From positions 868,001 through 932,000 of the forward strand of contig WHVD01000010.1 in assembly GCA_015178975.1 (NCBI GenBank): a stretch of 64,000 bases of DNA, read 5' to 3'. Each line of letters begins with the position of its first letter. Positions within the stretch are counted from its first letter, which is position 1. Shown here piece after piece: positions 6,782-57,285 of this stretch. A program made the translations under genes and the position numbers. The notes below the pieces were generated by a model, which worked only from the letters and a program-made list of their open reading frames with translations, was not told where the DNA came from and did not search any database. Source of the DNA: Hysterangium stoloniferum. Lineage: Eukaryota; Basidiomycota; Agaricomycetes; Hysterangiales; Hysterangiaceae.

Positions 6782-9028
6782 TCACCTCCTACTCCTCCCA
6801 GCCGCAGGACGATAATCATCACTATCATCCTCCATATCGCCCTCCCTCTCCGACTCCGACTCGTCCTCCTCAGCAGAAGGAGCAGCCATCCTCAGCCTCG
6901 CTCTCGCCTCCCCCCGCGCGCCCGCGCCCGCCCTCCTCGCCCGTGAGACCCCCAGCCCTGGCCCCCCAGTCCCCCGGGCCCCAATACCCTCCCGCTCAAT
7001 CTGCGCAGCGAGAGCATTGAACGTGCTGTTCAGCGCAGGTGCGGGTGCGGATGCAGTAGCGCGGGCGTGCGAAGCACTGGCGGTACGAGTGCCAGTAGGG
7101 GAAAGTGGGTCGAATCGTCGACGCGCCCTCGTAGGCTGAGTACGATCCGGTCCGATGCCGCCGCCGACGTGGGAACTGGAACTGGAACTAGGCAGGCTCG
7201 ATTGCGTTTGAGGCGTAAGACCGGTGGCGGCGGCGGCGGCGGTGGTCGTGGTCATGGTCGTAGAAGGAGCAGCAGCAGTCACACCAACGGGGGCGGGCAC
7301 AGACGGCATAGACGGCTGTCCAAAATGCGGCTGAGCCAACGCAGGTGAGGTCTGCATCTGACCCACACCGACACCCGGACCCGGACCCGGACCCTCCCAG
7401 ACCGTATAATACTGTCGATCAATCGGCGCAGGACTGCACAACATACCCGTAACAGCCGCATAGCTGCCCGCATTCGCAGGCAACGTCGCATAGGGGTGCA
7501 TGAGCGCCCGCCCCGCACCCACACCAGACGCCGCGCGAGGAGACCCACTCGGCGCGACCACGCCTACGCCCATCTCTATGAGGCTCGGGTCAATGGGGAT
7601 CGGGGAGTCATGCCCGGAGGTCGTCGGCGTGGCTCCAGACGCAGACGCGGGCTGGTCCTGGCTGGACCCCTCGCCCCTCTCCTCACGCGCCTTCTGCGCC
7701 GTCTCAAGAGCCTGTTGCGCAAGAGCACGCTTGCCGAGTGGCTTGTTCCTCTTGCGTGGCCGCTTGTTCCCCTGCGGCCGGTCCTTGGCGATGACCCAGT
7801 GATTTCCTTTCCCGGGTTCAGTGATGGGGCGCGGCACTCGCTCGAATTGGTTGTTGAGTGAGAGGTTGTGGCGGACAGAGTTCTAAACAAATTTAAAAAA
7901 AGGGTAGAGAAGGGTAAAGTTAGCGTATTGAAAATTGATTTGTGTGGATATAAAAATATAAAAATAAAACTGGGAGGCGACGTACTCTCCATGATTTTTG
8001 GTCGGCTGTTCTGTAGTACGGGAATCTGAGCTCCATGGCGAGATAGATCTCGGAAAGGGTGAGGCGTTCTCGTGGCGACCCGCCAATAGCGCATTTGACG
8101 ACGACTGGGATAGGGTATGCGGGGCGCTCTCTGGGATCGCAGTCTTGCAGTCTATTCAACCCAGCTGCGGCGCGCTGGGCGATAGTCCCTACATAAACAA
8201 ATAAGACGTTTCAATACCATTAAAAAGCCAAAAGATGGGAAGAAAGAGAAAACACATACCCTCCTCCTTCCTGAGCTCTTCAAACTGCATTTGTTGATGA
8301 GCAGTAGGGTAATATTGCCTATTCGCTAATTTATGCCCATACTCCGAGGTCATCAGACCCTTCTCATCATCATCAACGAGGTGTGGGTCCAACCCCTGCC
8401 CCTCAAGCTCATCCATGTACCCATCGTCGCCGCGGCCGTAACGCTCGTCGGTGTCCAGCGTCCGGTTCGACCCAGACCCAGAGCGAGAACGGGCACGCCG
8501 CCGTGCCTGCTCCTGCTCCTGCTGCCAATGCCTCAGCCGGTCGTCATCAACAGGCGACGGCGGGGACGTCGTCGTCTCCCCATGATTCCCACTAGAAGAG
8601 CCACGAGAGCCGCGAGACCGCCCGCGACTCCGTGTGCTGCTCCCATTGTAGCTTTCCGCCGCAGTAGACGGCCTGGAGTGGTTGGCAGGGTGGGAGTCGT
8701 ACTTGGTTTGCTGTCTATAATACATGAAGGTTGGGACTAGGGAAGGCGGCAAGTCGGGAGTTTCGAACGCGGGACGGTATTGCTGTTGAGGGCGGGGAGG
8801 CACAGGCGGCGCTGGAGGGTGAGGGTGAGGGCATGGATATCGATTTGGAGACGAGGTGAAGCTGGAGTAGTACGGCTCGACAGCGGTGCGAAGAACGGGT
8901 TCTCTGATACTTAGAGAAGGGGTGAAGGCAGCGTTTAGCACGAAACGTCCGGTGGAGGACTCGGTACTCGAATGGGGGGTTTGAGAGTTGGATCGGGTAG
9001 GAGGGGACCTGGGTGACGTGGCAGCCAT
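6782..9028 (-). CDS. Forkhead (winged-helix) transcription factor, FKH-A
   Basis: Three exons: 8260..9028, 7986..8188, 6782..7882 (about 690 aa). Start is the ATG at 9028; the frame is open upstream only through a GTG. The N-terminus (1-230) is low-complexity, rich in Pro/Ser/Arg. A tyrosine box, [13 protein letters not shown], lies at about 237-249, just before a phase-1 intron. The forkhead domain runs from about 279 to 350: [39 protein letters not shown], recognition helix [10 protein letters not shown] (325-334), then the wing GKGNHWVI. The base-contacting Asn and His are both present. A basic patch (KRPRKRNK) follows, then a long disordered tail and an acidic stretch near the C-terminus. 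A nuclear DNA-binding regulator is firm from the family; targets are unknown. Related to FKH-B, -C and -D in this window. Confidence 0.93.
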
Positions 9029-11127
9029 TTTTGTATACACGAAATATAACTGAATAAGTTGTTAAATATTAGGCTGCAAGGATGAAAGAGACATGAGCAC
9101 GAGATAGCACGCATGGCGGTTGAGGTGAGCAGAGTGGAAAAGAGAGAACGGAGCGCAAAGTCACGGCGCCTGGCATTACAGCACGAAAATCACGAACACG
9201 TCCGAATAGCAGAAAGAGCCATAACAATTAATGAAAAGCAGGTCATTATGACTCTAGTCTCGGAAGGACTTGCCAGCGTAGATGCGAAGCATTCGCAATG
9301 GACGTGAAGGCTTTTCCTTCCGCCGACGACACGCATAACGACCACGCCACGAACCCCAAGTGACACAGAACCAAAGCAACAAAAAGGATACGGTTAAAAT
9401 AGACTCACAAATTACAGATCAGTCTCTCAATAAAACCGGGGAAATTGTCGGTATGTAGGGGCAGGATGGTGCGTGGATGGGTTTGTGTACGTGTCTACGC
9501 GATCAAGGAAGTGGGAAATCTCAACACGCGGGTATTTAAAGCGAGCCAGTGACGTATACGAGCTGGTCGTTGTGGTGCGCGTTGAGAACGAGGTGTAGGT
9601 GTAGAGGAAAGGGCAGAGAAAGGGAGGAGATGGAGAGAAGATGAGGAAAGATGAGGTCGGATGGGAAAGTCGCAGAGTGTGGAAAACGTGAAAGGAAGAA
9701 GCGCCTCTCGACAATAAAGTTAAGGGAAGAGAACTGCTTTCAAGCTTAGGATGCGCTTTTAAAGCTGTCGAGTTCCGTGTACCTTGTGTGTGGAGGAAAA
9801 AAACGAAAATAAACATGGTGGCAGCCCCATTGTGTTCGAAGATTCGTTCCACAAATCTTCCACGCACACAAGTCTCTTACTTAATGGCTTCAGATTTGAG
9901 AGATATAGGCCACGATGTCTCAGAATATGTCCAGCACTGAACCGCCTCTTCTCCCCGACCACGGCTCAATTCAATCATTTTCTCATAGCCACACAAGCGT
10001 GTAAACACACAGAAACAAATACCACAACTATCTTCATGCGATCCTGTTGCCCAATTTTCAAAAAATGGGCGGCAAATCCGATGGGGGACACTCACGAGCG
10101 ACTAATTTTGATGGGTTTCCTACGCCATGAAGAAACATGGACCTACACGCGCATCCACTATCAATCCAACTTCGGCATCAATCCAAACAATCCAGTTCGG
10201 TTACAACAGGGCTAAATCACCCGTTCCAAGCGTAGAGCTTATCCATGTCGCTATAGCTCGAAATTCACCAATCAGTCTCCCATAACTCCAGCTCAGCCAT
10301 ATCAGATATTTTTATTTTCTTCATTAAAATTTGTTCCCCCATGTCCAAGCAAACATCCACCAAGGAACTCAGCCACAACCCACAAGAACAATAGATGGCC
10401 CACGTTACTGGCTAGATTTTATGGCCGCGTTTGGATCCCCGAAGCAGTAGAGCAAATAGGCATCCGCCAGCCAGCCAAGAATTAATAACACAAAGGGACC
10501 GGGTCCAAGCACCAAGAACAGCCCCTGCACGGGCTTTAACAACGTCGGTGGGTGTAAAACCCATTATTTTATTGATAGTGGTCCATAGCGACCCACTCCC
10601 CGATCACTTTGCCCTTTGCGCCATTGTTTCGTTTTGTTTTGTCGTTTGCTGCCCCACCGCAATCATCGAAGATTCTTGTCTTTCAAAGTGACTAGGTCTT
10701 ACTGCTTATTGAAATATACCCTACCTGTACTATCCGATCACACCTGGACCACTTTACCAACAGCGGAGTAATCCACTGCTCTTCTCCATCATTAGAAGCC
10801 ACTCTGAGGTTCTGCCTTTCTTTTCGCGAGCGTTTTCTGGCGTTCACTACCACTGATTGTGGCAGACGGAAATACGAAGGTCAATACACCTATCGATTAT
10901 CTATCTTACCAGTTCATGGACTCCTCACTCTTCCATCTCCCGAGCCAAAGAGCAGTCACCCTCCGAAGTTTCCTGAGAATTATCAACATCGACAGGACCA
11001 AATCGAATTTAGAATTCCGTTTTCAGTCCAAATGAGCATCAAATCTCGCTCACAATATTCACTACGCGAGGGCTATTTTCTCATCAACCGTTTTCGGTTC
11101 TGGTATCGAAGATAAAAACCGTCGACA
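9029..11127. other. FKH-A upstream region and gene-free DNA
   Basis: No supported gene. Bases 9530-9720, read leftward, are pyrimidine-rich with a TTTAAATA-like element near 9535, and a donor-like GTGAGT near 9410 suggests a 5' UTR intron; together these look like the FKH-A promoter and leader. Open frames at 9427..9867, 9784..10215 and 10431..10691 have no recognisable motif. From about 10.2 kb nothing distinctive is seen. Confidence 0.4.
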
Positions 11128-15258: not shown

Positions 15259-16677
15259 CTAGCACGGTGCAAGGTTCCAACGTCTGGGGCTCGACGGATA
15301 GAGAGGCTGGTGGGGTCGGCGAGTCGGCGGCGGCGGTAGCGCAATATAGTGTCGCCCTCCATGACGTTCAGTAGGAAACAGGCTTCCTGGTCCACCAAGT
15401 CCACTGATGATTGGTGTTGGGCTTTGCGGAGTCATAGAACGAAGCAACAAGCGGTTGTGGGAGAGGGGGAGGCTGGAGGGACCGGCAGCAGTGTTTAGTG
15501 GGGAAGAAACGCCCCTATCCAAAATCCTATCAGAGGGTTTAATCAAAAACGAGTCAGTCCGTCGGACGCGCTTCCGAGCGCGATTGGCAGGCGCGGCGTT
15601 ATGGTTTATAGACCAATATCCGCCTTGTCCCGGGTCGGGCCGCTCGATGTTTTGAAAACGCTCTTTCTTAGATAGGTTTTGGAGGAGCGTTCGCTAGATA
15701 AACAAAACAGTATTAGAAATCGTGGTGCTTAGTTAAAAAATATAGAGATTCAAAAAAAAGAAGGTGAAAGGCATGGTGCATCGTGGCAAAAGGCAGTCGA
15801 TTCAAACGCGTGCCAAAGTTTGAACGCTAAACAACCAGATTGAGTTCGAACTTACTTCCCAAGACCTAACCCCCTTCTCTTCCTCTTTTCCATAGTAGTG
15901 AAAGCGCTGTTTAAGAGTAATTCTCAATTCAGCAAGCGTGAGTTTTTGTTGAGGAGCTCCGAGAATAGCACATTCAATTATGAGCGGCATCGAGTACAAC
16001 GGCTGCTGCTCCAAATCCCCATCCAAACTGTTGAGACCGACGCTTTCTCGCTGTTGTAAGAAAGTAGCTAAATGATGAGAGCGAATTAGTTGAAAGATTT
16101 ATATGGCACATTATTCGACAAAGAATAACTCACGGTCCTGTGCAGCCATGGCGTCGAACTGTGCTTGGTGATACGAAGTTGGGTAGTAATCTCTATTGTG
16201 CAATATTCCTCGGCCTGTACCCCACCCTCCAGATCCCGAGCTTGTTTCGCCTGGTGGTTTATTGTGAGAAGATGGTATTCGGATTTCCTGAGAGTTTGGC
16301 CGCGGTGAGGGTCTATAGTCTGAAGCTGAGTGTTGGGAATGAGAGCTGAGTGGCGACTGGGTACGGTTTGTCGATTGTAAATGAGAAACACCAAGTTGGG
16401 CAGAGGTGTGGTCGTATCGTTCATCATGACGGACGGTATAATGTTGAGGATTCAAAGAAAAATTGTCTCTGGTATGTGGAAGAGGTTGGGATGTGGTGGG
16501 AACTGGCCGAGAGGTATCGGTTTCTTGTAGTAGGGTGGAAATACTGAGCGATCTATGGCGGCGGCCACTCCATGGTAATGCTGCAGATGGATTTGCTGGT
16601 GGCAATGAAGGGCGGCGCCATTCCCGGGCGTTCCGACCTTGTTGCCTTCCACTTGGGCTAGCACGCGGAGAAGACAT
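15259..16677 (-). CDS. Divergent forkhead-domain protein, FKH-B
   Basis: Exons 16134..16677, 15856..16067, 15259..15693 (396 aa); phases close exactly. N-terminus rich in Ser/Pro/Arg. Tyrosine box RDYYPTSYHQAQFDAM at about 162-177, then a phase-1 intron, then FLQQRESVGLNSLDG. Winged helix about 205-290: MPLIIECAILGAP, LTLAELRITLKQRFHYY, SWE, then a phase-0 intron. The recognition-helix slot reads RTLLQNLSKKERF (from 253) where FKH-A has [10 protein letters not shown], so the base-contacting Asn and His are replaced by Arg and Gln. The wing keeps GQGGYWSINH and is followed by a basic ARKRVRR patch. The C-terminus has HYIALPPPP and PSSPRRW, matched in FKH-C. Homology to FKH-A and -C is firm; whether it binds DNA is open. 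Confidence 0.88.
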
Positions 16678-18733
16678 CGCTGGTTATGTAGACAATGCAC
16701 TACGGGGCAAGACGGAGCTTTACAGAGTGCAGTTGCGAAGCTCTGTGGGAGCGTATTTAAAGGAATGTGAGGTATTATTGCTTTAAGCAAGGTGCAGGTG
16801 CAGGTGCTTTCTACCACCGAGTCTGCCTTTTTTTGTCTTGTTCGTGGCGGTGAAAATACAGATCAATACTAACCCGGAGGACTATTCTCAAATATATTGG
16901 CAACACATAGTAGCTCCCACTCACTTTGCGCCTGCTCTGTGAGGTATATGTAAAAGGCGAGGCAACAACGTGGTCGTGTCGTAATTAGATTGGCGCTGTG
17001 AAGACAACGTCAACATGGGAAGGGGTTGTTTGACCGTAAGCTTAGAGGGATTCCACCCAGGGGCCCTATGAATTTATTCGGTGGTCGTTAAGCAAAAGGC
17101 AATTAGCAAGAAATTAAATTAAGTGACGCGGGAGGGCAGAAGGAAGCGCAGTAGGTCGGCATGTGGACCACGCATTTCCTTGAGGTTAAATGGCGGCGTG
17201 ATGCACTGACGTCTGCATTTGTTTCAAACAGAAAATAGAGTGAATTCTGAATAAGGTGTATTGAAAATAGCTTCTCGTCGACTGACTGACGCACCACGAG
17301 GAATGCGCACGCCATATCGCCGTCTATTCAACTCTAGGTCATCGGGAAATCGTTATCAAGTGCCAGGAAGTAGTTATCAAGATAAAAGAAGCAGACATAG
17401 CGTAAAGCCCTGCCATACACGTTCTATACCGAGATGGTTATTGGACCTTTGCCTACTTCCGAGTGCGAGGTTTTAGCCGAGGCACAAATGGCGGGTCGGC
17501 TGGAGCATTGAAACAAAATTGTGAGGACTCATTAAATACATGATTAATCGACAAATGAGATTTTTCCTATATTCCTCAAAAATCAATTTTTATACCTTCC
17601 TCTGCGTTATGGAAGAAGAATGGGTCGAAGGTAGGCCTAGGGCACCAATGAATGTCAGCTGATAAGCCCATGCTTACGGCAATAGAACAACCGACGAAAG
17701 CTTTAAGTGTATTAAGTCTGTAAACGACTGAGCTAAACTTCTAAGGTCAAGGAACTCAAATGCAATCAAACTTTACTTACCTATGACATCGATGTTGACG
17801 CATTGACGATGTATGATCTTCAATGATATGTACAGGGTCATAATTATTATCATCACATTCATGCTTCATTCATGAGGGAGCCAATCATGGCTTGCCTCTG
17901 GTAGTGGTGGTTTAGGCTGATAACCAATCAATTAAAATCAACAATCTCACATCGGTAAGCTGCACACCTTTATCTATCTACAAATTATGATGGAAATACT
18001 AGTAGCCAGGTTCAATGGCGCTGCGTGCCACGCAGATTCGTAAATTCCGGTAACAGCCAATATCCACCATCTACATTTTTTAAAAGGTACAGCTGTCAGA
18101 TGGCTGCTAATCGAATATTAGGAAATGCGATGTCTTCATCAAAAACTGAGTAAGCGCACCGCCTTGTGATGATGGAGCCTGAGTATACTAGTACTGCCGC
18201 ACATCGCAAATTGGAAGGCAAATCTATCATGAATAAGGGAAATCTATCATGAATACTTGCTTCATGTCCTGTCACAGCTGTGGTCACTGCTTAAGAATAA
18301 TTAGTAATAGGGTAATATGACTTAATTAAGGCGTCACACGACTGGATTTATTAAAAGTTAGTCATATAATATCAACTCTTGCGACAGAATCATGATCACA
18401 AGGTGTTAGAGAGCCTTGGAATATCAGGAACCGATTCTATAATAATTAAAGCTACGTCACGGTAAGTCGACTGTAAATAAATGCTGTATAGGGTAACTTA
18501 CCTGAGATGTGGGTAACGATAATATAAGGTGAACCTGATTAAATAATAGTGACTTCATGCTGATCCGCCTACGACCCTGACTTGTACGGCTTGACCGGCG
18601 GGTGTCTCTGTTGTTGCTGTATAAGTACCTTTGTGAGCCATCGCATCTCTAAATTAACTCATCTCTAAACTTTGCCCCTGCTTTCCTGACCGTCACAACA
18701 TTTTTACTGGCTAATACTTTTTACATTGTAACT
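16678..18733. other. Intergenic DNA between FKH-B and cyclopropane synthase
   Basis: Should contain the FKH-B promoter (just above 16677) and the synthase promoter (just below 18734). A small direct duplication of AAATCTATCATGAATA occurs at about 18222-18256. No gene, structural RNA or transposon recognised; the open frames present are short and featureless. Confidence 0.45.
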
Positions 18734-20809
18734 ATGAGTATTTATTCCACCCAACTCCTTCGTACATCTGCTATCCATCGTGGGTCCATAACGGGCGTTC
18801 TGGATGTTTTGTGGAATAGAACTTCCGAAGCAGTCGCCAATCTGACGTCTGCTTCATTCCCAAGGCTCGCGCAGGCCCTTGTCGTTAGGTATTTGAAACA
18901 CATAATTAACGTCTATAAATAATTCTGGAATTGAAATGATACTTGCCAGTACATTGAAGGAGCTGAAACACGGCGAGTTGCGCGTTGTGACTGCCACGGA
19001 AACGATGTGTTTCGGAAGCCACCAATCTTGTGATCTAAAGGCCGAAATTCGCGTCAAATCTCCAACATTTTGGACCAGAATTCTATTTTCCCAAGATCTC
19101 GGGTTTGCTGAGGCATTTATGTATGGAGATGGTTAGCCAAGCCTTCACAAATTGTGATTTAGTTCGGCGTCATTAAACTCTTTCGGTTTTAGTCGACTGT
19201 GATGATGTGTCTGCCCTTCTCCGGGTGAGCATCGTTTACAGACTGATGCGACAATATTTGATATATTGATATATACTGTTTGAATAGCTCTTCATTGCCA
19301 ACAAGCAGCATGCCAAGTCTAAGACATTGGTCAACACGATGTTATCTGCACCCAAATTTCTTACAGCTGTTCGTTTCTTGGGGGATATTACTAATTCTCG
19401 TGCAAATATTTCTGCACATTATGATATCGGAAACACGATGTGTGGTGACTGTTTCTTGTCCCGATAGAAACGGGAATGATAATTTTCATAGGTTTACTGC
19501 GTTTCTAAGCTCTGATATGAATTATTCCAGCGCCATCTTCAAGGACTTTACCGAAGACATAGAGCCTAAAGAGGGCCCGCGAGAAAGTCTGGCGGACGCG
19601 CAGATACGAAAAATGAGGTAGATGTTTCAATGTTACCAGAAGTGTATGTGAATTAACATAAGGTTTTTGGCAGAAACATAATTCGCAGCGCCAATATTCA
19701 AAAAGGGCACCACGTCCTTGAAATAGGTTGGTTATAAGCTTGCATTTCAGCATTCACTAAATGGCGTGCCAGGTACCGGTTGGGGGGCACTCGCGATCAT
19801 GGCCGCTGAGATGACAGGCTGCACTGTTGACACGCTCACACTATCCTCTGAGCAGCAAGCCTTGGCGGAAGCGCGTATAAAGTTCGCCGGACTCTCCGAC
19901 AAGATCACAGTCCATTTGATGGACTATCGGGATGTTAAGTCTCGTCCAGAATGGGAACACAGCTTTGATAGGTTCATGAGCGTGGAAATGATGGAACATG
20001 TAGGGAAAGACTTTTTTGAAACCTACTGGGAGGTGGTGGACTGGGCGTTAAAGGAGGATGGGGCTGTAGGATGTGTGCAGGTAATCACGTTGCCCGAGTC
20101 GAGTAAGAAATTTCGGAGCGATGATGGTGTGAAGATAGAATGACTCACCTATTTACCTCCAGGGGTGAAACTGTATGATCGAGATCTTGACTTTGTCCGG
20201 AAATGGGTAAGTGGCTTTAAACTACAGTATTTTCCTTTACTTATTAACTAATTGGTAAATTACAAACAGAGTGAGTTATACTTTTGTTTTCTCCCCGTAG
20301 CGTTAATAATGCAATTTTGTTTTCATGTAGTTTTCCCAGGAGGATATCTTCCAAGTTGCAACCTCTTGATTAGCAGCATGGCAAATGGCAGCTGTGGACG
20401 TCTTATAACTGATTCAGTATCGAACATCGGTCCACATTATGCACGCACGCTGCGTGAATGGAAATGCAATTTCATCCGCAACTTCCAATCGATCATTGCC
20501 CCCGCACTGCACAGGGAGCATGATCTTTCTCCAAAGGATATGGAGATATTCAGACGGAAATGGATATGTGTGTCCGCCTATTTGAAATTATGTTCTTTGA
20601 AGTCTTACCAGCACCACCCTATTCCTAATGATAGATTACTTGTGAGTGATCCCGCGAATCATCTCGACAGACACGCGACTGACATTATTTCTAGCGATTA
20701 TTGCGAAGCTGGTTTTGTAACTAAGATCTTGGGGGACCACATTATTTCATTCACTCGAGAGGGCAATGTCGCATTGGGCTGCACTTGGGACGATTACGAT
20801 AAGTTCTAA
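18734..20809 (+). CDS. Cyclopropane-fatty-acyl-phospholipid synthase (SAM-dependent)
   Basis: Exons 18734..18888, 18950..19131, 19193..19224, 19288..19439, 19492..19617, 19674..19726, 19773..20102, 20163..20206, (20270), 20331..20571, 20695..20809 give about 476 aa. The enzyme transfers a methylene from S-adenosylmethionine to a cis double bond of membrane phospholipid acyl chains. Seen: NISAHYDIGNTMF, the SAM-binding LEIGTGWGALAI (about 231-242), SVEMMEHVG, a [VI]FPGG motif, DSVSNIGPHYARTLREW, RRKW and GDHIISFTREGN near the C-terminus, all in family order and at normal length. To keep frame between exons ending RKW and starting FPGG, a one-base exon (A at 20270, flanked by AG and GTGAGT) must be assumed; otherwise the gene carries a frame lesion there. 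Function is firm if the gene is intact. Confidence 0.85.
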
Positions 20810-28711: not shown

Positions 28712-30067
28712 ATGCTCCATTCTCAGAACCAACACCTTGCGGAACAACGGAGCTCAGGCAATCAACGGCCGGTATTAAATCTTGGTTGTTTACCTTGTGT
28801 CTATACTTGTAACATTAATATCGCCCAGATCCTGTTTGATGAACCGCAACCTTTGCGAACTAATGACTGCGACATGATGGATGTTGATGTGAGGCTCCCT
28901 AAGCCCCGGACTTTTCAGGCGAAGCCTGCCACTTCGAGGTCGGCCTCCTCGATTACAAGACACAACGGTCAACACAACAACCAGATGAAAACCAGCAATA
29001 CTCAGGTAGATTTGCCATCAAGACGATCTCCTAATTCCCCCCATTCCGATATTCATATGCCCTTTCTACCGACGGATCAAACAAAATTACATGCGTCTCG
29101 GATGGCGGCTCAACGACCTGTAAATCGACCTGACGGAAAGCTTTCTAACCGATGTTATTATCCTTCACTACGCCATCAGGAGGCCTTCGACATACTTTTG
29201 TCTACAAATCGTGAGTGCAAGAAGAAATGCCCTTGTAAATATGTTCATCTCTCTTTCTTTTATCGATAGCGATTGAGTTTGAGCGACGAGAAAATGAAGG
29301 ACTCAACGCGCTCGATGGCCGCTTGAGGGAACCGCCTATCTACGCTACGCCCATCATAATTCAATGCGCCATATTAGGAGCCCCACATCAATCCCTGACT
29401 CTGTCGGAATTGCGTGTGACTCTCAAAATCCGATTTCAGTATTATGACGTGGCGGATGTTACCGTTGTTAAATCTTGGGAGGTAAGTTATTCTATGCTCG
29501 TTACACCGTCATGTAATGGACTTGCTTTTGGTCTACCATCAAACCACGTCTCTTTTTCGTTATGTATTCATAGCCAAGTCTTGGCGACGTCTCATCCAAT
29601 GCTGGCCGTTTGAATCCACGCTAATGACATTTCTTTATGGACAGCGAACTTTGTTGCGAACGTTGTCCGACCATACCCGGTTTCAGTGCTCAAAGCGCAT
29701 GGGGCCGTCAGGCGCGTCTTGGACCATCAACCACAGCGCGCCGCCTATCAAGTGCATTCCAAAACGACAATGTCACATTCGCAAAAGAAAAATCTGTCCT
29801 GCTGACCAGCCAAACCATCTCGCGAATACTACAGTGGACAATGATACGACAGAGAGTGATGGCACAGCTTCCACTGTGGGCAGATCTCCGAGTATTTCAG
29901 CCGATACTGGGTATGGCCAGGTCCGAAGCCTCTTCCCCGTACGTCCTGCATCTGCTTCGCATGGAGGGTACATCGAATTACCGCCACTGCCGTCGAGTAG
30001 GCAAGAATGGTGCCCCACGAGCCCGAGGTTGTGGTCTCGCTCGGAAATTTCTTTCCAAGAATTTTGA
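28712..30067 (+). CDS. Divergent forkhead-domain protein, FKH-C
   Basis: Exons 28712..29210, 29270..29481, 29645..30067 (377 aa, phases close). A further in-frame intron at 28772..28828 (57 nt, good splice ends) is possible and would shorten the N-terminus by 19 residues. Tyrosine box RCYYPSLRHQEAFDIL at about 147-162, then a phase-1 intron and FERRENEGLNALDG. Winged helix: TPIIIQCAILGAP, LTLSELRVTLKIRFQYY, SWE, phase-0 intron, recognition slot RTLLRTLSDHTRF, wing SGASWTINHSAPP, then a basic KRQCHIRKRK patch. Exon 2 is exactly 212 nt, as in FKH-B. The C-terminus has GGYIELPPLP and PTSPRLW, matching FKH-B. Canonical base-contact Asn and His are Arg and Arg. Closest relative here is FKH-B. Confidence 0.88.
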
Positions 30068-37607: not shown

Positions 37608-38623
37608 ATGAAAGCTATTTCCCCTCTCAAAAGAGAACAAGCCATCTCCCTCCTACAAAATGGACTCTCCAATAGGAATGTAGCCTCTACAACAGGTCTT
37701 AGCAAATCTACTATCAGTAGAATTGCTCAGGAGATAGAGATAGACAAAGAAAACCTGAAAGGAGGATGTCCATCCAAGCTTTCTCCTACTGACCAAAGGA
37801 GGATCATATATATATCAAATCACCTCTGGCAAACTAGATAATGCTGTCCAGGCCACACACTACATTAATTCCATCAATAAATATCATGTCTCACCCAAAA
37901 TAGTCAGAAGGACCTTGAAACAGCATGGTTTCAAAGCTGTAGTCAATGCAAAAAGACCTTTGCTCAAGGCTCAACATAGAAAGGCCAGGTTAAGCTTTCC
38001 CCTCAAGTACCAAAACTGGACTGTGGATGATCAGAAAAGGGCTTGTGGTCTGATGAGACCAATATCAATAAGATTGGGTCAGATGGACATCAATATGTGT
38101 TGAAGAAAGCTGGAGAACCACTTTCTGATAGGACAACCCAACTTACAGTCAAGTATGGAGGTGGAGATATCATGGTGTAGGGCTGTATGGGTTGGAATGG
38201 AATGGGAATGCTTGCAGAGATTGAAGGAAAAATGGATTCTGCACAATATGTGGAGATCCTGGTTCAGAATTTGTCCCAGAGCATTGAAGATTTGGATATT
38301 CCAGCAGATGAGGCCATTTTCCAGCAGGATAATAACCTAAACACATCCAAGATGGCACAAAAATGGTTTTTGAAAATCATATTCAGGTGTTAGACTGGAC
38401 AGCACAGTCTCCTGACCTGAATCCCATAGAAAATCTTTGATTCCACTTGAAGAAACAGCTCCAGAAATATCCTTCACCATTAAAGGGAGTTTAGGGGTTA
38501 TAGGAGAGGGTGGAAGTGGAATGGGCAAAGATTGAGCCTCAGAAGTGTCAGAAACTGATTGAAAATATGCCCAGAAGACTTGATGCTGTAATAAAGCCTA
38601 AGGGAGGCCATACAAAGTACTAG
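37608..38623 (+). pseudogene. Tc1-family transposase pseudogene
   Basis: Begins at the ATG at 37608 with SPLKREQAISLLQNGLSNRN, a Tc1 helix-turn-helix, followed by TTGLSKSTISRI and PSKLSPTDQRR. Later, in shifting frames, come the DDE-domain landmarks: a damaged form of the WSDETK block near 38040, FQQD near 38320 with the usual NDPKHTS tail damaged, and [10 protein letters not shown] at about 38410-38440, where the normal Trp codon has become TGA. Several frameshifts and stops; no active product is expected. Confidence 0.88.
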
Positions 38624-39560: not shown

Positions 39561-39639
39561 ACTGATAGCAGGATGCTGGAGGGTGAGGAGGGTAAAATGA
39601 GGTTGCAGAGGGCCAAATGACATGGATCCTAACAGAAGT

Positions 39640-42620: not shown

Positions 42621-42671
42621 AAAATTGAAAAAAGAAATTTCTTCTTCTTCATTACCCCCATCTTCGTCACT

Positions 42672-43656: not shown

Positions 43657-43861
43657 AATAGAAAATAGAACTTAATACTAATTGAAACATAAAAGTAAAA
43701 CGTGAAAAACATAAAAAATAAGAGTCAAAGCCAAAGTCTGCGGAGAGTCCGCTTAAAGACTTGACAAGACATGTCAGAACCTGTAAAAGCAAAGAGAGAC
43801 ATAGGGCGACAGAGAATAATGTAAATGAGTCCAAACATAACACGGGGTCCGCGGAGTGCGG

Positions 43862-46800
43862 TCAGAGAGAAGATAATGGTCCAGATTTGAGCGGGTAAGC
43901 TGTATGAAAGTCAGTAACGATTTCCGTGGCATTACCGAGTTCCGTGGCCAAAATCCATGAGGTTTCTTCATCGGTGCCCTCGTAACCTGCCCACGTGACC
44001 AAGTAAAGCAGTTTACAAGTGCGTCGACGCTTGTCTATTTTTGAATCTAAAATCTGTGAGATTTCAAACTCGGGTTCTCCGTCAATGACGACAGGAGGAG
44101 GCGGAGATTGCATGTGATCCGGGATAGTGTTAGCAGTACAAGGTTCAAGCATAGAAACATGAAATACTGGGTGTACCGCACGCATGCTATCCGGAAGCCA
44201 TAGGGTCCAAGAAACTGAACCTACTTGTGCGATAATTTCAAACGGACCTAAATATTTTTCAGCAAGCTTCTTTGATGGACGGGTAGTCCAGAAGAATTGA
44301 GCTTTGACATAAACACAGTCGCCAATCTTGAAGTTTGGTGGCGGGATCCGGTGTTTGTCCGCTGAATGTTGGTATTGCTCTTGGGCGGACAATATTGCAG
44401 TCCGGAGTTCCTCGTGGAGCTTGTGGAGGTCCGTGGTGAACTCTTGAGCACGAACAGAGGCGAGATTTCGTTCTGGATGTACTGTAATGTTTGGATTATA
44501 TCCTTTATTTGCAAAGAACGGGGAAACGCCAGTAGTGGCCGAGGGTGCATTGTTGTAAGCAAACTCTGCAAGTGGTAACAAGGTTTTCCAATTGTCCTGT
44601 TGATAGTTGCAATATACGCGGAGGTATTGTTCCAATGTCTGGTTGACGTGTTCGGTTTGTCCGTCACCTTCCGGGTGATGTCTGGACGTGAAATGTAATG
44701 TCATGTCCAAGGATTTTCCGAGGGATCTAAAGAAGTGAGACACGAACTCTGATCCTCTATCGGAAGTCACATGGGACGGAACTCCGTGCTTGGAAAATAC
44801 GTGGATAATGAAAAGTTCCGCTAACTGCACGGACATAATTGTATCATAAGTAGGGATGAATATACCTTGTTTTGAGAATCTGTCAACAACGACTAGAATA
44901 GCAGAAAAGCCTTCGGAATCCGGTAGGTGTTCAATGAAATCCATAGATATAGAATTCCACGGGTGTTCCGGTACCGGGAGTTGTTTCAAAAGGCCGTATG
45001 GCTTGTGTCGCTAAGATTTCGAGCGGGGACAAGTAGTGCAAGATTTACAATAGTGCTTAACGAATCCACAGAGTCCGGGCCAAGTATATTCTCTTCTTAT
45101 TAATGATAGAGTTTTGTTGTACCCGAAATGTCCTGAGAGTGGATGATCATGTTTGTATTGAAGGATCCTGAGGCGGAGGCCGTCGGAGTCCGGTACATAG
45201 ATCCTATCGTCAAGTCTAATGAAACCATGTTGATCAAGAGACCACCGAGGTTGATCGGGGTCCACGGGATTGTCCAGATGAGCTTTAGTAACTGGGTCTG
45301 GCGGAATTGCCGATAGAATATCTTGATGTAACTTCTCGATATCCATAATGATAATTCCACGGACAATGGGATTGACGAGGAAAGTTGCACGGACCGATGC
45401 GGTAAGTTGTTGATTCGTGAAAATAGGTTTCAGGTTGTGCAGATTTACCGTTGCATAGTCGTTGCTCCCCTCTTTAGGATAGACGTCCCATCGTCTAGTT
45501 AAAGCGTCGGGTTTGCCGCCGAGATGGCCGGGTCGAAAACGGATAATCATGTTGAAGGTGGAGAGATATTCAGACCAGCGGGCCTGCCGGCGGGTCAAGA
45601 GTTTTGTGGTAGAAAAGTATTCCAGGTTTTTGTGATCTGTTACAATGTCAATAGGAGCTCCTGAACCTTCCAAATAGTGTCGCCACGCTTTGAAAGCTGA
45701 AAAGATTGCCAGAAGTTCTTTATCATGAACGTCGTAGTTGAGCTCTGCTCCGGTAAAAGTCCGGGACAGAAAAGCCACGGGTTGGACTTGTCCGTCGGAG
45801 TCCTGGATAGAGAGAATGGCTCCAAGTGCATAGTCGGAGGCATCCGTTTCAACAATGAGCGGGAAGTCCGGTTTCCAATGCGACAGAATAGGAGCTGTAG
45901 AAAAAGAATTTTTTAAAAGATTGAAAGCTTTTTGACACTTATCATTAAAGTTCCATGGAGTACCCTTACGCGTAAGACGGGTAAGGGGTACCGTGATGTC
46001 GGAATATCCACGGATAAAACGTCTGTAAAAATTGGCAAAGCCGAGGAAGGATTGTATATCTTTAACTTTTCGGGGGTTCGGGCCAATCTTTGATGACTTG
46101 CACTTTAGTTTCGTCCATGCGGAGTCCATCAGGTCCCATCATGAAACCTAGGTATTCCACGGAGTCCGTGTCAAAAGTACATTTTTTACTATTTGCGAAT
46201 AAACCATGTTGCCTGAGCCTCCGGAGAACTTCACGGACTTGTTTGTCGTGTTCTGCGGGATTCTCGGAGTAGATAAGAATGTCGTCCAAGTAAACAATGA
46301 CGCATACATTGAGCATGTCGGAGAAAATGTCGTTGATAAAACGCTGAAAAACAGACGGGGCATTAGTGAGTCCAAAAGGGATGACCAACCACTCGAAGGC
46401 CCCATAGCGGGTTCTAAAAGTGGTTTTCCATTCGTCGCCCACGGCAATCCAGACCAAATGATAGGCGTGCTTGAGATCTATTTTGGTGTAAATCCGGGCA
46501 TTCCACGGAGCATCGAGCAGGTCAGATATAAGTGGGAGTGGATATTTGTCCTTTTTGGTGACAGCATTGAGTCCTCTAAAATCAACACATAGTCGAAGGG
46601 ATCCATCCTTTTTTCTGACAAACAGAACAGGTGCTCCAAAAGGAGACTTTGAGGGTCGAATAAAACCTATGGACAAATGTTCATCCAGGAAATCACGGAT
46701 TGCGGATAGTTCCGTGGACGAGAGCGGGTAAATATGTCCTAGGGGTGGCTGGGTGCCATCTTCAAGATTGATTTTTAAGTCATATTCTCTATGAGGCGGA

Positions 46801-47720
46801 AGCCGGTCAGCTTTTCGCTTGCTAAAAACATCCTCAAAGTCATGATATTTCTCCGGGACACCTTCTAGGTCAGCGGCTTGCTCAGATTCAGATACCGGGG
46901 TTGAAAAACGTCCAGTTGCTTCATCAATTTTTAAGTTGATAGTGAACACCTGGGACCCATCCATTTTTGAAGCCCTAATAAAAGCTGCAGCATTAATCAG
47001 AGAAATGGATGGAGGTGCCGTGGGTTCCGGGGAAGCTATAGGTGCCGTAGGGATCACAGGAGTCCTCGAGACTGCAGGTGCCGGGAAGGCCATGGGTGCC
47101 GTGGAGGCCGTGACAGGCGCAGTTTCCTCGGTCGCCACAGGAGTCCGGAATGTTATACTGTTAGCTATCCAGTCAATCAACGGATTGTAGTGGGTAAGCC
47201 AGTTATGTCCTAGGACCACCGAGCAACTTGAGTCTAACTGGGTCACATAGAAAGTGACCAATTGAGATGTTCCACAAGGGAAATTGATGGGTAAATCACA
47301 AGCTTGGGTAACAACCGAATTACTTGTGCCATCGAAGAGGCGGAGAGCGACGGGATTTATTGAATAAGTTGACAAAGAATTTTTTTGCATGAATTTTGTA
47401 TCTAAAAAACAATGAGTCGAGCCGGAATCTATGAGAGCTGAAAAAACGAATTTCGGAATCATATTAGACATAAGTTTAACGAAAAATGAATCAGAATGTG
47501 AAAGAGCGGATGCGTTGAGGCGAGTGAACTCTTGAATGTGCGGAGAGGCAATGCAACCCCTAACCCGCGCGGAGTCCGCGGGGTTGCTTACTCTTTTTTC
47601 GAATTGGCAGCCGGTTTGTCCTTCGACGGGGCTTCCGTGGAGGCTTTGGCTGATCGACCCTTTGAAGAGTTTGCTTTTGCCAGCAGACATTCCGGGACTC
47701 GATGACCGGGTTTCCCACAC
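43862..47720 (-). pseudogene. Pol polyprotein (PR-RT-RNaseH-IN-chromodomain), two lesions
   Basis: Overlaps gag by 133 nt in the -1 frame. Protease motif ALIDSGSTHCFLD near 47430; reverse transcriptase with VDFRGLNAVT and the YLDD box near 46290; RNase H with VETDASDYALGAIL near 45830; integrase zinc finger HxxxH/CxxC near 45050-45140; catalytic core with MDFIEHLPDSEGF, TSDRGSEF and PEGDGQTEHVNQ; C-terminal chromodomain LLYLVTWAGYEGTDEETSW near 43990. Two breaks: one extra base in a C5 run (46072..46076) ends the RT frame at 46062, and a TAG at about 45011 separates the integrase zinc finger from the core. Apart from these the frame is well kept, so inactivation is recent. Chromodomains in this class direct integration to heterochromatin. 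Confidence 0.93.
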
Positions 47721-48880
47721 AAGAGACAGAGGTTGTTGTCCATACGACGTTGTCTTTCTTGTGGAGTCAATTTGCCATCGGGTCCAAGTTTGCCTGAGAG
47801 GTCAGGTTTTCCGGCTTGCTTGCCGGACTGTTGACCCTTGTTGTTGTCCTTATTGTCCTTATTGTTGTTGTTGTTGTTTGAAGACTTTTTATCATTCTTC
47901 TTGTCAGATTGCATGGAGTTCTGGTTGCTGGTTGACGAATTGTTGTTATTGTTTTTGTCCTTGGACTTGTTTACTTTGTCCGCGGATGTCTCACGGGCAA
48001 CTTCCGCACGACATTCCCAATAACGTGCGTCCGCGTTTTGAGCTTTGAGGCGCATATGGGACAGGGTTTTTGGCTTGCCATCTTCTCCTTTCGAGACTTC
48101 GTCTTTAAGGCGGGACGGCAGACCGGCGTAGAATTGGTGGCGGAGAGCGGGATCGCCCCACTGACAACGAGCTGCAAGATTATTGAATTGGACGATGTAG
48201 TCCGTGATGCGCTGCGTGTCCTTCATACGAAGATTTGTGAGACTATTCTCTGCTTCTCCTGTCGGGTCATATGGGCCGAAGTTGGTTTCAAGCTCCTCAA
48301 CAAACGCCTCCCAATTTTCAAGCCAGAGTGGCTCTTCCTCGGATATTCCGCTAAAAGCCGGTTCGAACCATTTCAACGCGGATCCCGATAAATATGACAG
48401 TGCGTAATTGACTTTTCGGGAGTCCGTGGAGAATGCAGCAGCACGATCACGGAAGTTGAAGCGACATTGCATGAGGAAAGTAGAGAGTTTGTTTGGGTTG
48501 GAACCCGTGAAGGGTTCCGGAGCATTGACTTTTGACCGTGGAGGTTCTTGTTCCTTTTTCTTTCGTTCTTCGAGCAGGTGCGTCATGAATTTATCTATGG
48601 TACCTGCTAAAAATTCAGAAGTAGAATCCTCCAAATGCGGTCGTTGAACAGGCGGAGGATTTTCAGGAGGGATTTCGACACCTTTGCCCTTGTCGGGGGC
48701 CACGGAATTGTCCTCACGCTCGGATTCGTCCAGGTCTTCCGGGACTTCTTCGATGCAGGCTTCTTCCATGGGTTCTGACTGGTTCGCAAGTGTCTGACTG
48801 GTATACAGAGTTAACGGGGAATGAAGAGTCGACGGTCCAGGTATTGATGACTGTGCGCATGTACTTCTTCTTGGTGGCAT
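47588..48880 (-). CDS. Gag capsid/nucleocapsid protein of the gypsy element
   Basis: Intact 430-codon frame from the ATG at 48880. The N-terminus is acidic and Pro-rich. The capsid-like retrotransposon Gag domain (KVNAPEPFTGSNPNKLSTFL, ALSYLSGSALKWFEP, NFGPYDPTGEAENSL, YIVQFNNLAARCQW) lies at about residues 115-270. An Asn/Lys-rich low-complexity linker follows, then a zinc knuckle CLLCGKPGHRVPEC (CCHC). Binds and packages element RNA in virus-like particles. Pol follows by a -1 shift. The leader between the LTR and this ATG is only 36 nt. Confidence 0.93.
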   Translation of the reverse strand: MPPRRSTCAQSSIPGPSTLHSPLTLYTSQTLANQSEPMEEACIEEVPEDLDESEREDNSVAPDKGKGVEIPPENPPPVQRPHLEDSTSEFLAGTIDKFMTHLLEERKKKEQEPPRSKVNAPEPFTGSNPNKLSTFLMQCRFNFRDRAAAFSTDSRKVNYALSYLSGSALKWFEPAFSGISEEEPLWLENWEAFVEELETNFGPYDPTGEAENSLTNLRMKDTQRITDYIVQFNNLAARCQWGDPALRHQFYAGLPSRLKDEVSKGEDGKPKTLSHMRLKAQNADARYWECRAEVARETSADKVNKSKDKNNNNNSSTSNQNSMQSDKKNDKKSSNNNNNNKDNKDNNKGQQSGKQAGKPDLSGKLGPDGKLTPQERQRRMDNNLCLLCGKPGHRVPECLLAKANSSKGRSAKASTEAPSKDKPAANSKKE

Positions 48881-48978
48881 AATGAAAACAATCTGCGAGT
48901 ATTAGTCAGAAAATACTGTTAGGATACACACACAGGCCGGGTTTCCGGAGAAACCCGCGGGATATCCGGTAGGACTTG

Positions 48979-51090: not shown

Positions 51091-51626
51091 AGACTCCACT
51101 CCTGCTCTGTTTCCCATTATGGTTTATGATTTGTCACAATTCGGACTCCGCTCTGTTCCGTCCTGTTCCTAACACCAAATTTGGTGTTTACTATTCTTGT
51201 TTTATGTTTTGTTAGTTTCGTTTCATTATTACTGGATTTGGTATGTCATTCATTCCACGGTCTATTTAGTCTGGCAGATGTTGTACATACAATCCAGTCA
51301 GAAAATTGGCTTAGATTCCCCCCAGTAACCTAATACATTTTCCGCTCTAAACTCCTACTTGAATCACACTGCTCACGCTAGTTGGAGCCCATGGGGTCCG
51401 GCGCATCTATCTCTCTTATCTATCTCGACTCACGACCTCTCAACCCATGACCTCTGACCTATGACCCTTCGACCCATGAACCCCACCTGGACTCCCCGGG
51501 ATTCCCATCCGCCTGTCTGAAATTGGACAACATGATCTCGCGAGGGTGCAGCCTATAAGCTGAAGCCAAGTCCTACCAGATATTCCATGGGTTTCTCCGG
51601 AAACCCGTTGTGTACGTACCCTAACA
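51091..51626 (+). mobile_element. Older solo LTR, right part
   Basis: Continuation of 41343..41637; ends CCTAACA at 51626 and is followed by AGATC (51627-51631), the perfect partner of the target duplication at 41338-41342. Confidence 0.85.
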
Positions 51627-51631
51627 AGATC

Positions 51632-52632
51632 CTAATAAATGGTTAATACCTTCCCATGCCAACACACAGTTTGAAAATGTGCTCTGTGTTCAGGGATACA
51701 TGCAGTGACTAACCAAGGCTCCCTGCTCAAAAAGCAATTATCCTGCAACACAACAAAAAGTCAAGAACTCTGGAATATTCTACACAGAGTCTCATCCATA
51801 GTAATACTCCTCAGTGCATTTCAGCATTTCAAATAAAGAATTTTTTTCAAAAGTCCTTCCCTCTCCTGCACAATAATCACTTTAGACACCCTCATCCAAG
51901 GCCTTTGTCTGTTCCAGATTTTCTCCTGACATCATTCAGCCTAGCTGCAATTTTTTCCTCAACCACAGTAGTAGATGAAGTATTAACCAAAATACAGTGC
52001 AGTAGCATTTCCAACAGCTTGATTGATCTCTCTTCGCTCTTTCCCTCTCTGATCAAACAGCCAAGGTCCAGACCAATCAGTCACTTGTAGCCATAGCCAT
52101 AGACAGCAAACTAATGGACGGAAATTCCCCAACCATTTATGTAATTATACATACGCCTTAATAATTTGCCTGCTTATCTTTTTATCCACCCCCTCACCCC
52201 CTATTCCCCCCATGATATCATTATCTTTTTTATTTTGAAAAAAAAAGGCATAGGATTTGATTTTGGTATCTATATATCAATCGATACTGATCTCACCTAA
52301 TATAGTTGAAAATTGAATTATATCTATTCTAGAGGCTATGAATATTCTCAGCTTGAATTGCTTCCGTGGCAGTGCCAGAGTTGTTACCGCTCTGCTGTAA
52401 CCACATAAAGCCTACTTCCATTTTCCACTTGACTTGTACTAGCAATACGGTAAATTGCTGTGACTTCTAGTAAAGACCCTTGTGTCGATTATTCGATTAT
52501 CCTTATCCTTTCGCTGCCAGCGGCAATCGCAAATTCGCACAGCCGACGTTCGCTTAGTCTCCTGTTAACGACAGAGCATTACTATTACTTCTATCACCAC
52601 CAGATTTTTTCCGGGTTTTCCGCGCACTCATA
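51632..52632. other. Right edge of the old transposon block and DM9 promoter region
   Basis: Bases 51632 to about 52130 are CpG-poor like the substrate left of 41343, so both are halves of the same old sequence. From about 52.3 kb normal base use returns. The last few hundred bases should hold the DM9 promoter. No gene. Confidence 0.45.
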
Positions 52633-53205
52633 ATGGGTTATGATCAAGCAGCACCGGCGCCATCCACACCGTCCCAAGTCCCACCAATCCCACCCCCCGC
52701 GGGACATCGATTCCCACTCTCCACAGACGATGCATTCCCTGCCATACAGTCCCTACCCCCAACCTCACTGTACGATCTTGGAGGCCCACACCAAGTCGTC
52801 TATGTAGGTTCAGCAATATTCGGTTCATCCATACATCCTTGCAAAATCGCACCGCATCTTGACCCGCCAGTGCGTGTTCCATATGGCGGTGTAGAACATG
52901 AGCACAGGGGACGGTATGATCTGCTGCCAATTGATGATAAGACCATGGAATGGGTTAACACGGGCCACGGGCGGGTTCCTCAAGGAAGGAGACCCATCGA
53001 AGGGGGATATGAAGAAGGAGGAAATAGATTATTTCATGCTATTGCATTTATAGAGGGAATCTGGATTCCTGGAAAGACTGGGGAGCATCTCGTTAGTGAT
53101 ATTAGTCTCTATTCTTGAGTATTATGCATTGAAACTCTATAGGGAGGGGCTAATATTGCTTTTGGGGGAGAAAGGGTTGTTCAAGATAATTATCAAATAC
53201 TGTGA
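52633..53205 (+). CDS. DM9-repeat (DUF3421) protein
   Basis: Two exons, 52633..53091 and 53143..53205 (173 aa). The GTTAGT...TATAG intron restores the family motif EHLGGANIAFGGE across the junction. The N-terminal 45 residues are Pro-rich. Then two DM9 repeats: VYVGSAIFGSSIHPCKIAPH with VRVPYGGVEHEHRGRYDLL, and GNRLFHAIAFIEGIWIPGKT with GGANIAFGGERVVQDNYQIL at the C-terminus. DM9 proteins occur widely in fungi and animals; some animal members bind mannose-type glycans. No signal peptide, so it is probably cytoplasmic. Its biological role in fungi is not established. Lies close to the transposon block. Confidence 0.88.
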
Positions 53206-56200: not shown

Positions 56201-56317
56201 TCAAATTCTGTTAAATCGGGAGCATACTTCATCATTATTCGGTGCATATTTCCTGGAAGAACTGTGTAATCACCCTTATAACCCTCCGCAATTCAACTGG
56301 CGCATCTAGCATCTAGC
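53206..56317. other. Gene-poor stretch upstream of FKH-D
   Basis: No well-supported gene. A possible remnant begins at an ATG at 54633 (MLSMYLRYEALRAGRQNLDF), reaches a GTAAGT donor near 54780 and can be joined to a short exon near 54839, but the product would be only about 60 residues. The minus frame at 54148..54384 has protein-like composition but no motif. The promoter of FKH-D lies at the right end. Confidence 0.35.
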
Positions 56318-57285
56318 ATGGGATCCAAGAACGCTGACTCGAAGCTCGAGAAGTAGGTACCGAGAACGACGGATGTACCATGAACTAATCGATGCATATT
56401 GAAAGGTACTTTCCTCTAGTGCGGCAATACCAACGGGACGACGGCCTGTACCCCAACAGATGGTACTATCCATCAGAATACCACCAAGCCGCGTTTGACA
56501 CGCTTTTGTCGCTTGATGGTCAGTTATTCTTTGTTTTGACTGAGGTCCATGGCTTATAGCTCTTAGATCAATTTTTACAGAAACGAGACCGAATAGGTCT
56601 CAACTCGCTAACAAGCAAAGTACCCGAGACCCCTGAAAAACCTCCACAGCATACACTTCGGATAGTCTTGGAATCTGTGATTCTAGGTTCTCCGAATCAA
56701 ATGCTTACATTCGGGGAGATCTGTTTCGCTCTTAGATTGCGATTTCCCTATTATGAAAATTGTAACATGAAGCAAACGCGGTGGCGGGTGAGTCGTTACT
56801 CGATATCTACATAGCACCTTGACTCAATATATTCCCAACAATAGAAAACTCTTACGAGGCTACTCCCTAGAAAGTTCATTCACGTTAAATTTGATGATAA
56901 ACATTATTGGAAAATCAATAATGAACTTCAACTTCGAAGATGTAAATGTGGTGATTATCATGGGTTAAAAGAGTCTGAGCAGAGTACGACCTATTATTTC
57001 ACTCCTCAATCATTGACTACTGGCAGTGAAAGCATCAAGATGGATTATAGTCCCTCCAGTAACTACCTGGAGGTTTTTGAGACGGAAGGCAGCTCCTCGA
57101 ATAGTATACTGGATGATAGTGATGCTGAAGACTCGGAAGACGACTGCAACGGTGGACTGGGCAGTCGTTACAGTAACTTTCCTTCGGTTCCAGCCGAATC
57201 CATTCCCGGAGGGCCCTCCGGCATTTCATCACGCCGGTGTATTCTTCTCCCCCCTCCCGTGGACCTAAAGTTCCAAGCCCGCTGA
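56318..57285 (+). CDS. Divergent forkhead-domain protein, FKH-D (shortest paralogue)
   Basis: Exons 56318..56352, 56406..56518, 56567..56787, 56845..57285 (269 aa, phases close). Tyrosine box RWYYPSEYHQAAFDTLLSLD at about 30-49, a phase-1 intron, then DQFLQKRDRIGLNSL, nearly the same as FKH-B. Winged helix: RIVLESVILGSP, LTFGEICFALRLRFPYY, RWR, phase-0 intron, recognition slot KTLTRLLPRKFIH, wing DDKHYWKINNE. No basic patch like that of A-C follows; instead there is a small CKCGDYHG segment and later a strongly acidic stretch (DDSDAEDSEDD). The C-terminus has RRCILLPPP, echoing the ILxLPP motif of B and C. Canonical Asn/His of the recognition helix are Lys/Arg. Most derived of the four; may act without DNA contact (inference). 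Confidence 0.85.

What the first reader, a model, noticed from the sequence alone, without database searches (positions are those of the whole stretch)
6782..57285. Four forkhead-domain paralogues in ~50 kb sharing an undescribed tyrosine 'YYP' box and two intron positions
FKH-A (6782..9028), -B (15259..16677), -C (28712..30067) and -D (56318..57285) all have R-x-Y-Y-P-[ST]-x3-[HQ]-x2-F-[DE] some 10-20 residues before a phase-1 intron, then a GLN-[SAR]-L linker, then the winged helix. All four also split the domain at the same phase-0 intron just after SW[RE] (RWR in D). Only FKH-A keeps canonical forkhead residues. Seen directly: motifs, intron phases, and exon lengths 203/212/212/221. Inference: a local, fast-evolving gene family born from a forkhead factor, with the YYP box as a new interaction module.
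Basis: partly seen in the sequence, partly recalled or inferred. Interest (0 to 1): 0.9.

Follow-up and report, generated by a model that had tools for sequence, protein, structure and literature searches.

The report
Fungal forkhead family with added YYP module
Four neighbouring genes of a truffle-like fungus, and several more elsewhere in its genome, make forkhead-type proteins with an extra conserved piece (the "YYP box") that our searches met only in stinkhorn-group fungi, and one of them carries a reshaped but strictly conserved DNA-reading helix.

Summary
All four genes are forkhead-fold genes, with the motif, both intron phases and exon-2 lengths (203/212/212/221) as described. The host is Hysterangium stoloniferum (Phallomycetidae). 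The box is not chance: left out of the profile, A, B, C and D score 21.0, 41.8, 25.4 and 29.1 bits, against at most 1.7 in 120 control forkheads and 2.4 in shuffles.

Corrections. (1) The family is not only local: four more intact-looking YYP genes, two weaker members and several relics or copies lie elsewhere in the genome. (2) The phase-0 intron is a general fungal forkhead intron; only the phase-1 intron looks diagnostic. (3) B is constrained: named relatives in three further orders keep its non-canonical recognition helix (15 of 16 positions invariant over B and five relatives). C and D are the fast ones. (5) Descent of B-D from A is not shown.

AlphaFold predicts the box as ordered helix before the winged helix in two subfamilies. 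Function is inferred, not shown. New variant of a known kind.

The parts
6782..9028 (-). FKH-A: canonical forkhead with YYP box, 3 exons (8260-9028, 7986-8188, 6782-7882), 690 aa
   Evidence: Forkhead 86 bits
8276..8323 (-). YYP box of A ([16 protein letters not shown])
   Evidence: left-out profile score 21.0 bits
8189..8259 (-). A intron 1, phase 1 (diagnostic site)
7883..7985 (-). A intron 2, phase 0 (general forkhead site)
15259..16677 (-). FKH-B: YYP forkhead with altered recognition helix, 3 exons (16134-16677, 15856-16067, 15259-15693), 396 aa
   Evidence: (45.4 bits)
16150..16197 (-). YYP box of B (NRDYYPTSYHQAQFDA)
   Evidence: 41.8 bits left out
16068..16133 (-). B intron 1, phase 1
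15694..15855 (-). B intron 2, phase 0
15262..15393 (-). C-terminal SLFP...LP...SPRxW module of B
   Evidence: 26.3 bits with B and P0002 left out
28712..30067 (+). FKH-C: divergent YYP forkhead, 3 exons (28712-29210, 29270-29481, 29645-30067), 377 aa
   Evidence: 20.7 bits
29147..29194 (+). YYP box of C (NRCYYPSLRHQEAFDI)
   Evidence: 25.4 bits left out
29211..29269 (+). C intron 1, phase 1
29482..29644 (+). C intron 2, phase 0
29918..30064 (+). C-terminal module of C
   Evidence: 20.0 bits left out
56318..57285 (+). FKH-D: most divergent YYP forkhead, 4 exons (56318-56352, 56406-56518, 56567-56787, 56845-57285), 269 aa; first exon and start codon uncertain
   Evidence: 22.5 bits
56455..56502 (+). 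YYP box of D (NRWYYPSEYHQAAFDT)
   Evidence: 29.1 bits left out
56519..56566 (+). D intron after the box, phase 1
56788..56844 (+). D intron within the domain, phase 0
57163..57282 (+). C-terminal module of D, without the SPRxW end
   Evidence: 21.5 bits left out

Best explanation
These are members of a forkhead subfamily, met here only in Phallomycetidae, in which an N-terminal extension (YYP box plus GLN-x-L linker) is built onto the winged helix to make one larger folded domain. Shown: homology of the box across members, the phase-1 intron that goes with it, and clade I (B, C, D and relatives in further orders) with its own C-terminal module. Predicted by model: the box is ordered helix in both subfamilies modelled, and in B the linker too. 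Inferred: the extension is a structural cap or partner-docking surface common to canonical (A, L019) and non-canonical members. Inferred: B is a nuclear regulator that still holds DNA through its wing and basic tail (RxRKR) but reads a different site, or binds only with a partner, because its recognition helix was replaced once (NSIRHNLS-type to RTLLQNLS) and then kept. C and D are faster-diverging duplicates of the B type.
Against: No DNA-binding, expression or interaction data. Packing of the box on the winged helix was not seen: only pLDDT and secondary structure were returned, and both models used the same 32 proteins. The P0130 linker falls to block pLDDT 71 and is not helical. C and D fall below Pfam's cut-off and lack the RxRKR tract, as does P0007. 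The L025 box is not significant (-0.4 bits) and L023 is weak (6.1 bits; best shuffle 4.8). In the free tree L025 falls among non-YYP rows, as a very long branch. The canonical forkhead L003 and its Gautieria match P0028 are far more alike than B and its relatives, so B is constrained but not extremely so. B's own end branch (0.0066) is short partly because a 94% identical sequence, P0002, is in the tree.
Confidence: 0.62

Rival explanations
1. B, C and D are decaying or dominant-negative forkheads that lost DNA binding; the box is a leftover of a formerly canonical factor.
For: N, R and H of the recognition helix are lost in all three. C and D have long end branches, sub-cut-off Forkhead scores and no RxRKR tract. 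Relics of sister genes exist in the genome: L022 with both donor sites apparently lost, a shortened copy on C431, a truncated B copy on C46.
Against: B's altered helix is invariant at 15 of 16 positions over B and five relatives, and B keeps the basic RxRKR tract. C and D keep open frames over their exons and the C-terminal module.
Confidence: 0.2
2. The box is a short linear motif in a disordered tail (for example a tyrosine docking site), not part of a folded domain.
For: Short, aromatic, with R-x-Y-Y-P pattern; the rest of the N-terminus has low pLDDT; the P0130 linker is not helical and drops to block pLDDT 71.
Against: The box itself is helical with block pLDDT 94-96 and 89-92 in models of two different subfamilies.
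Confidence: 0.15
3. The box is ancestral to agaricomycete forkheads and was lost or blurred elsewhere; the linker is the same segment as the L-x-x-L-x-D-x-P-x-G before other fungal forkhead domains.
For: A pre-domain segment such as NLDSLRDGPPGSKP or SLWSLPDPPPGEKP precedes the domain in L002 and many agaricomycete proteins and resembles GLNSLDGD by eye; L002 has a lone SYYPD upstream.
Against: Profile comparison gives probability under 1 in all six YYP-versus-other comparisons, but that test is weak for so short a segment: the two other sets, which visibly share it, reach only 2.0 with each other. No control scores over 1.7 bits in the single-gene leave-one-out runs, or over 3.0 in any run.
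Confidence: 0.15
4. The four genes resemble each other by chance or convergence.
For: C and D are weak against Pfam alone.
Against: Full-length A-B, A-C, A-D BLAST E-values 2.5e-28, 4.5e-20, 3.5e-15 in pairwise comparison, shared phase-1 intron, box scores.
Confidence: 0.01

Closest known systems
Forkhead (FOX) winged-helix domain, Pfam PF00250
   Different: Extra predicted folded extension before the domain; B, C and D replace the N-S-I-R-H-N-L-S recognition helix.
Clacol_002931 and Clacol_002928 (Clathrus columnatus), M422DRAFT_27072 (Sphaerobolus stellatus), JB92DRAFT_3117131 (Gautieria morchelliformis)
   Same: Box, linker, SWERTL[LM]QNLSKK helix and C-terminal module as in FKH-B.
   Different: Deposited as hypothetical or fork-head domain-containing proteins. 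Which of them, if any, is an ortholog of C or D was not resolved.
Other agaricomycete forkheads (Rhizoctonia, Suillus, Mycena, Exidia and others; in this genome L001-L004)
   Same: Forkhead domain; phase-0 intron inside the domain in L002, L003, L004 and four other proteins where visible; a segment just before the domain.
   Different: No YYP box in the 41 fungal-type rows printed or in 120 controls.
BU17DRAFT_65761, BU17DRAFT_80809, BU17DRAFT_99208 (clade II, H. stoloniferum)
   Same: YYP box, linker, both intron phases.
   Different: Their search met only H. stoloniferum proteins (3); extra intron before the wing; no clade I C-terminal module.

Membership tests
Forkhead family (PF00250), genes A and B | Profile match over the curated cut-off | tested here: met
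   A 86 and B 45.4 bits, cut-off 27
Forkhead family (PF00250), genes C and D | Profile match over the curated cut-off | tested here: not met
   20.7 and 22.5 bits, below 27, though E is 4.4e-4 and 1.2e-4; their place rests on homology to B, clade I and intron sites
Forkhead family | Winged-helix fold | tested here: met
Forkhead family | Canonical recognition helix NS[IV]RHNLS | tested here: not met
   Met by A only; B RTLLQNLS, C RTLLRTLS, D KTLTRLLP; 115 of 120 controls carry it strictly
Forkhead family | Binding to a forkhead DNA site | not testable with these tools
   needs a DNA-binding assay
YYP-forkhead subfamily (proposed here) | YYP box before the domain | tested here: met
   A-D and L008 left out singly, L015, L017, L019 left out as a group; L023 weak; L025 not significant
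YYP-forkhead subfamily (proposed here) | Phase-1 intron between box and linker | tested here: met
   A-D and 6 of 6 modelled relatives. The junctions of the relatives were chosen by eye with the family in mind; P0130 and P0131 confirm two exactly, while P0132 reads through this intron of L017
YYP-forkhead subfamily (proposed here) | Single origin | tested here: inconclusive
   free tree needs 2 changes; one clade not rejected, p-AU 0.217

The most novel reading that the evidence does not exclude
Box, linker and winged helix form a new composite regulatory domain that arose in the ancestor of Phallomycetidae. In the B line its recognition helix was rewritten once to RTLLQNLS and then fixed across the subclass, giving a forkhead factor with a new DNA or partner specificity, while Hysterangium went on to amplify the box-bearing family, including a unit now in four nearly identical copies.
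Probability: 0.35. Interest if true: 0.72.

Novelty: new variant of a known kind. Interest (0 to 1): 0.5.

Why it matters
The forkhead recognition helix is very conserved: 115 of 120 control proteins here share one eight-residue pattern. A factor that replaced it and then kept the replacement in several fungal orders is a natural experiment in how DNA specificity changes. The YYP extension offers a defined module to test as a new part of a DNA-binding domain, and a possible lineage marker for Phallomycetidae.

Tried and rejected
Considered and rejected: chance resemblance; a box-like relic elsewhere in the window (the 11.5 and 10.0 bit hits are motif fragments); the phase-0 intron as a family signature (and read-through introns); FKH-A as demonstrated parent of B-D. 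Left open: whether the GLN-x-L linker is the L-x-x-L-x-D segment of other fungi (one search gave no support but is a weak test for so short a segment).

Led nowhere: literature. Eight full-text searches gave no paper on this family, judged from listings only; four of them returned no or one paper. One paper was opened for passages alone (PMC7550596): it names H. stoloniferum and G. morchelliformis as ectomycorrhizal Phallomycetidae genomes and has no 'forkhead' in its main text. In the structure comparisons most listed chains begin at the forkhead domain itself, so the box region was barely tested there; no conclusion is drawn that its fold is new.

Limits: one search listed only 120 of 634 hits, so absence of the box outside Phallomycetidae is shown for those only, and many of the 120 are animal proteins. 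No protein search was run with C or D as query. Genomes of other fungi could not be read, so the Clathrus neighbourhood rests on two locus-tag numbers and one contig length. The tree used 36 rows; relics, repeat copies and most listed controls were left out. L025 was left out of the box profile after it failed. In the run that left out clade II, L023 was not among the best 400 rows kept.
Full report
WHAT WAS CHECKED. The window is G000:C2:868001-932000 of a 111 Mb genome in 554 contigs. A deposited protein of Hysterangium stoloniferum (P0001) is 100% identical to FKH-B over the searched region, and its contig has the same length, 1501424, as C2, so the host is that fungus (Phallomycetidae, Hysterangiales). 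I rebuilt the four genes from splice signals. All four have a phase-1 intron shortly after the box and a phase-0 intron directly after W[RE], with exon-2 lengths 203, 212, 212 and 221. D needs an additional 53-nt phase-2 intron to join its ATG at 56318 to the box exon, so its first exon is the least certain part. Pfam scores each as Forkhead: A 86 bits, B 45.4, D 22.5, C 20.7 (cut-off 27).

THE BOX IS REAL. Each gene was left out of a 24-column box profile and then scored with it: A 21.0, B 41.8, C 25.4, D 29.1 bits. The best of 120 control forkheads (the 120 listed of 634 hits of the FKH-A search) scored 1.7 in these runs and the best of 200 shuffles of each protein 2.4. With all of clade I (9 rows) left out its members score 14.4 to 34.3 bits, against 3.0 (controls) and 6.2 (1800 shuffles). 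With clade II left out, four of five score 8.3 to 14.1, against 2.3 and 5.1 (1000 shuffles), and L023 was not among the best 400 rows kept. Weak cases: L023 6.1 bits on its own (best shuffle 4.8), L025 -0.4. A profile comparison of the 62 residues before the domain links clade I, clade II and A (probabilities 88.9-96.4) but none of them to the same segment of two sets of other agaricomycete forkheads (all six under 1; the two other sets against each other 2.0, so the test is weak for short segments).

THE FAMILY IS WIDER THAN THE WINDOW. Searches of the whole genome and reading of the loci gave: intact-looking box genes L008 and L019 (C346), L015 (C334), L017 (C66); a member with a degenerate box, L023 (C431); a forkhead with a shifted, non-significant YYP, L025 (C50); and relics or copies: L022 (C334, both splice donors apparently lost), a shortened copy of L023 (C431:462.7 kb), two inverted copies on C356, a 95.5% copy of B's upstream region and exon 1 on C46 that ends 8 bases before the exon-1 boundary, and a box gene in four places on C431 and C58, the three others 96-99% identical to the query copy over about 1 kb (four weaker partial matches were listed too). 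All six modelled relatives have the phase-1 and the phase-0 intron at the same places; the junctions were chosen by eye, but deposited proteins P0130 and P0131 equal two of the models exactly. P0132 differs from my L017 model: it reads through the phase-1 intron and uses another acceptor at the second. A search with the box alone gave 13 matches: A-D, the C46 copy, four clade II loci and the four repeat copies; none is a gene that I recognise as anything but forkhead-like.

WHICH SIGNATURES ARE DIAGNOSTIC. The phase-0 intron after W[KE] is also present in L003, L002 and L004, non-YYP forkheads of the same genome; L001 lacks it and L026 has only a likely donor. It shows as read-through introns in P0038, P0039, P0041 and P0042. 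It is therefore older than the family. No intron was seen at the phase-1 site in L003 or L002. Box plus phase-1 intron are the family's marks.

PHYLOGENY. On the domain alone (36 rows, 91 columns), B, C, D and six relatives (P0002-P0007) form one group at 98/98 with a long stem (1.29). Path lengths: B to the Clathrus, Sphaerobolus and Gautieria relatives 0.32-0.38; C to its nearest row 1.14; D to its nearest row 2.94. B's end branch of 0.0066 is short partly because the 94% identical P0002 is present. A does not join them. All sixteen YYP rows as one clade are not rejected (p-AU 0.217), but the free tree needs two changes; L025, a very long branch, falls among non-YYP rows. The named relatives come from Clathrus (Phallales), Sphaerobolus (Geastrales) and Gautieria (Gomphales), which suggests that the B type predates the split of the four orders; P0002, P0003 and P0008 are unnamed. 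Clathrus has two of them with close locus tags (2931 and 2928), apparently on one contig, which hints that the B-C neighbourhood is old too. The clade II search met only H. stoloniferum (3 proteins among 130 candidates).

A REPLACED BUT FROZEN RECOGNITION HELIX. 115 of 120 control forkheads carry strict NS[IV]RHNLS, and 120 of 120 a relaxed form. B and its relatives carry SWERTL[LM]QNLSKK; from SW to ERF, 15 of 16 positions are invariant over B and P0002-P0006, against 77 of 139 over the whole segment. P0007 was not in that count and has M at one position. The basic RxRKR tract behind the wing is present in A, B and P0002-P0006, absent from C, D and P0007. That base contacts are made by the N and H of this helix is recalled knowledge of FOX-DNA structures, not tested here. 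C and D carry further changes.

A SECOND MODULE. B, C, D and their relatives share a C-terminal stretch, SLFPS-x-P ... [IY]-x-LP ... SPRxW (D lacks the last part). C and D left out together score 16.3 and 21.1 bits; A, six clade II-type models and 120 controls score at most 4.3 and shuffles at most 7.5; left out singly C scores 20.0 (controls up to 6.7, shuffles up to 8.5) and D 21.5 (4.8, 6.4). It also shows that the frame used here for the end of B is the conserved one; the deposited model P0001 departs from it after residue 322.

INTERPRETATION. Best reading: a Phallomycetidae forkhead subfamily with an extended winged-helix domain, one branch of which (B) fixed a new recognition helix, with C and D as fast local duplicates. 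The YYP extension occurs both with canonical helices (A, L019) and with altered ones (B), so it is unlikely to be a mere by-product of lost DNA binding. Its role, cap or docking surface, is inferred. No published description was found in eight searches of an open-access library; papers outside that library were not seen.

Noticed in passing
G000:C431:77549-78549, C431:147452-148424, C58:49001-50001, C58:154904-155916 (L084-L086): A box-bearing forkhead-like gene lies in a unit present in four places, the three others 96-99% identical to the query copy, two per contig in opposite orientation; recent amplification of unknown kind.
   Followed up: partly
G000:C46:229.4-230.5 kb (L020): Recent 95.5% copy of the B upstream region and exon 1 (window 16142-17128), broken 8 bases before the exon-1 boundary, followed by sequence that does not match the window.
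   Followed up: partly
G000:C356:510.7-513.0 kb (L082): Two inverted copies of a divergent LYPFPHLQAEFD box gene about 1.6 kb apart.
   Followed up: partly
window 46065-47801: Open frame with reverse transcriptase and aspartyl protease matches, in a run of long minus-strand frames from 43865 to 48901 that were not scanned; looks like a retroelement between C and D.
   Followed up: no
window 37759-38100: Tc3-type transposase match.
   Followed up: no
window 19727-20806: Two frames matching CMAS (cyclopropane synthase-like methyltransferase) between B and C.
   Followed up: no
window 52558-53115: DM9-repeat protein match before D.
   Followed up: no
L008, L015, L019, L023 C-termini: Clade II models share a short C-terminal stretch like LPS[LI]xxxGLxA, seen by eye only; P0130 has a predicted helix at its C-terminus, 480-489.
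   Followed up: no
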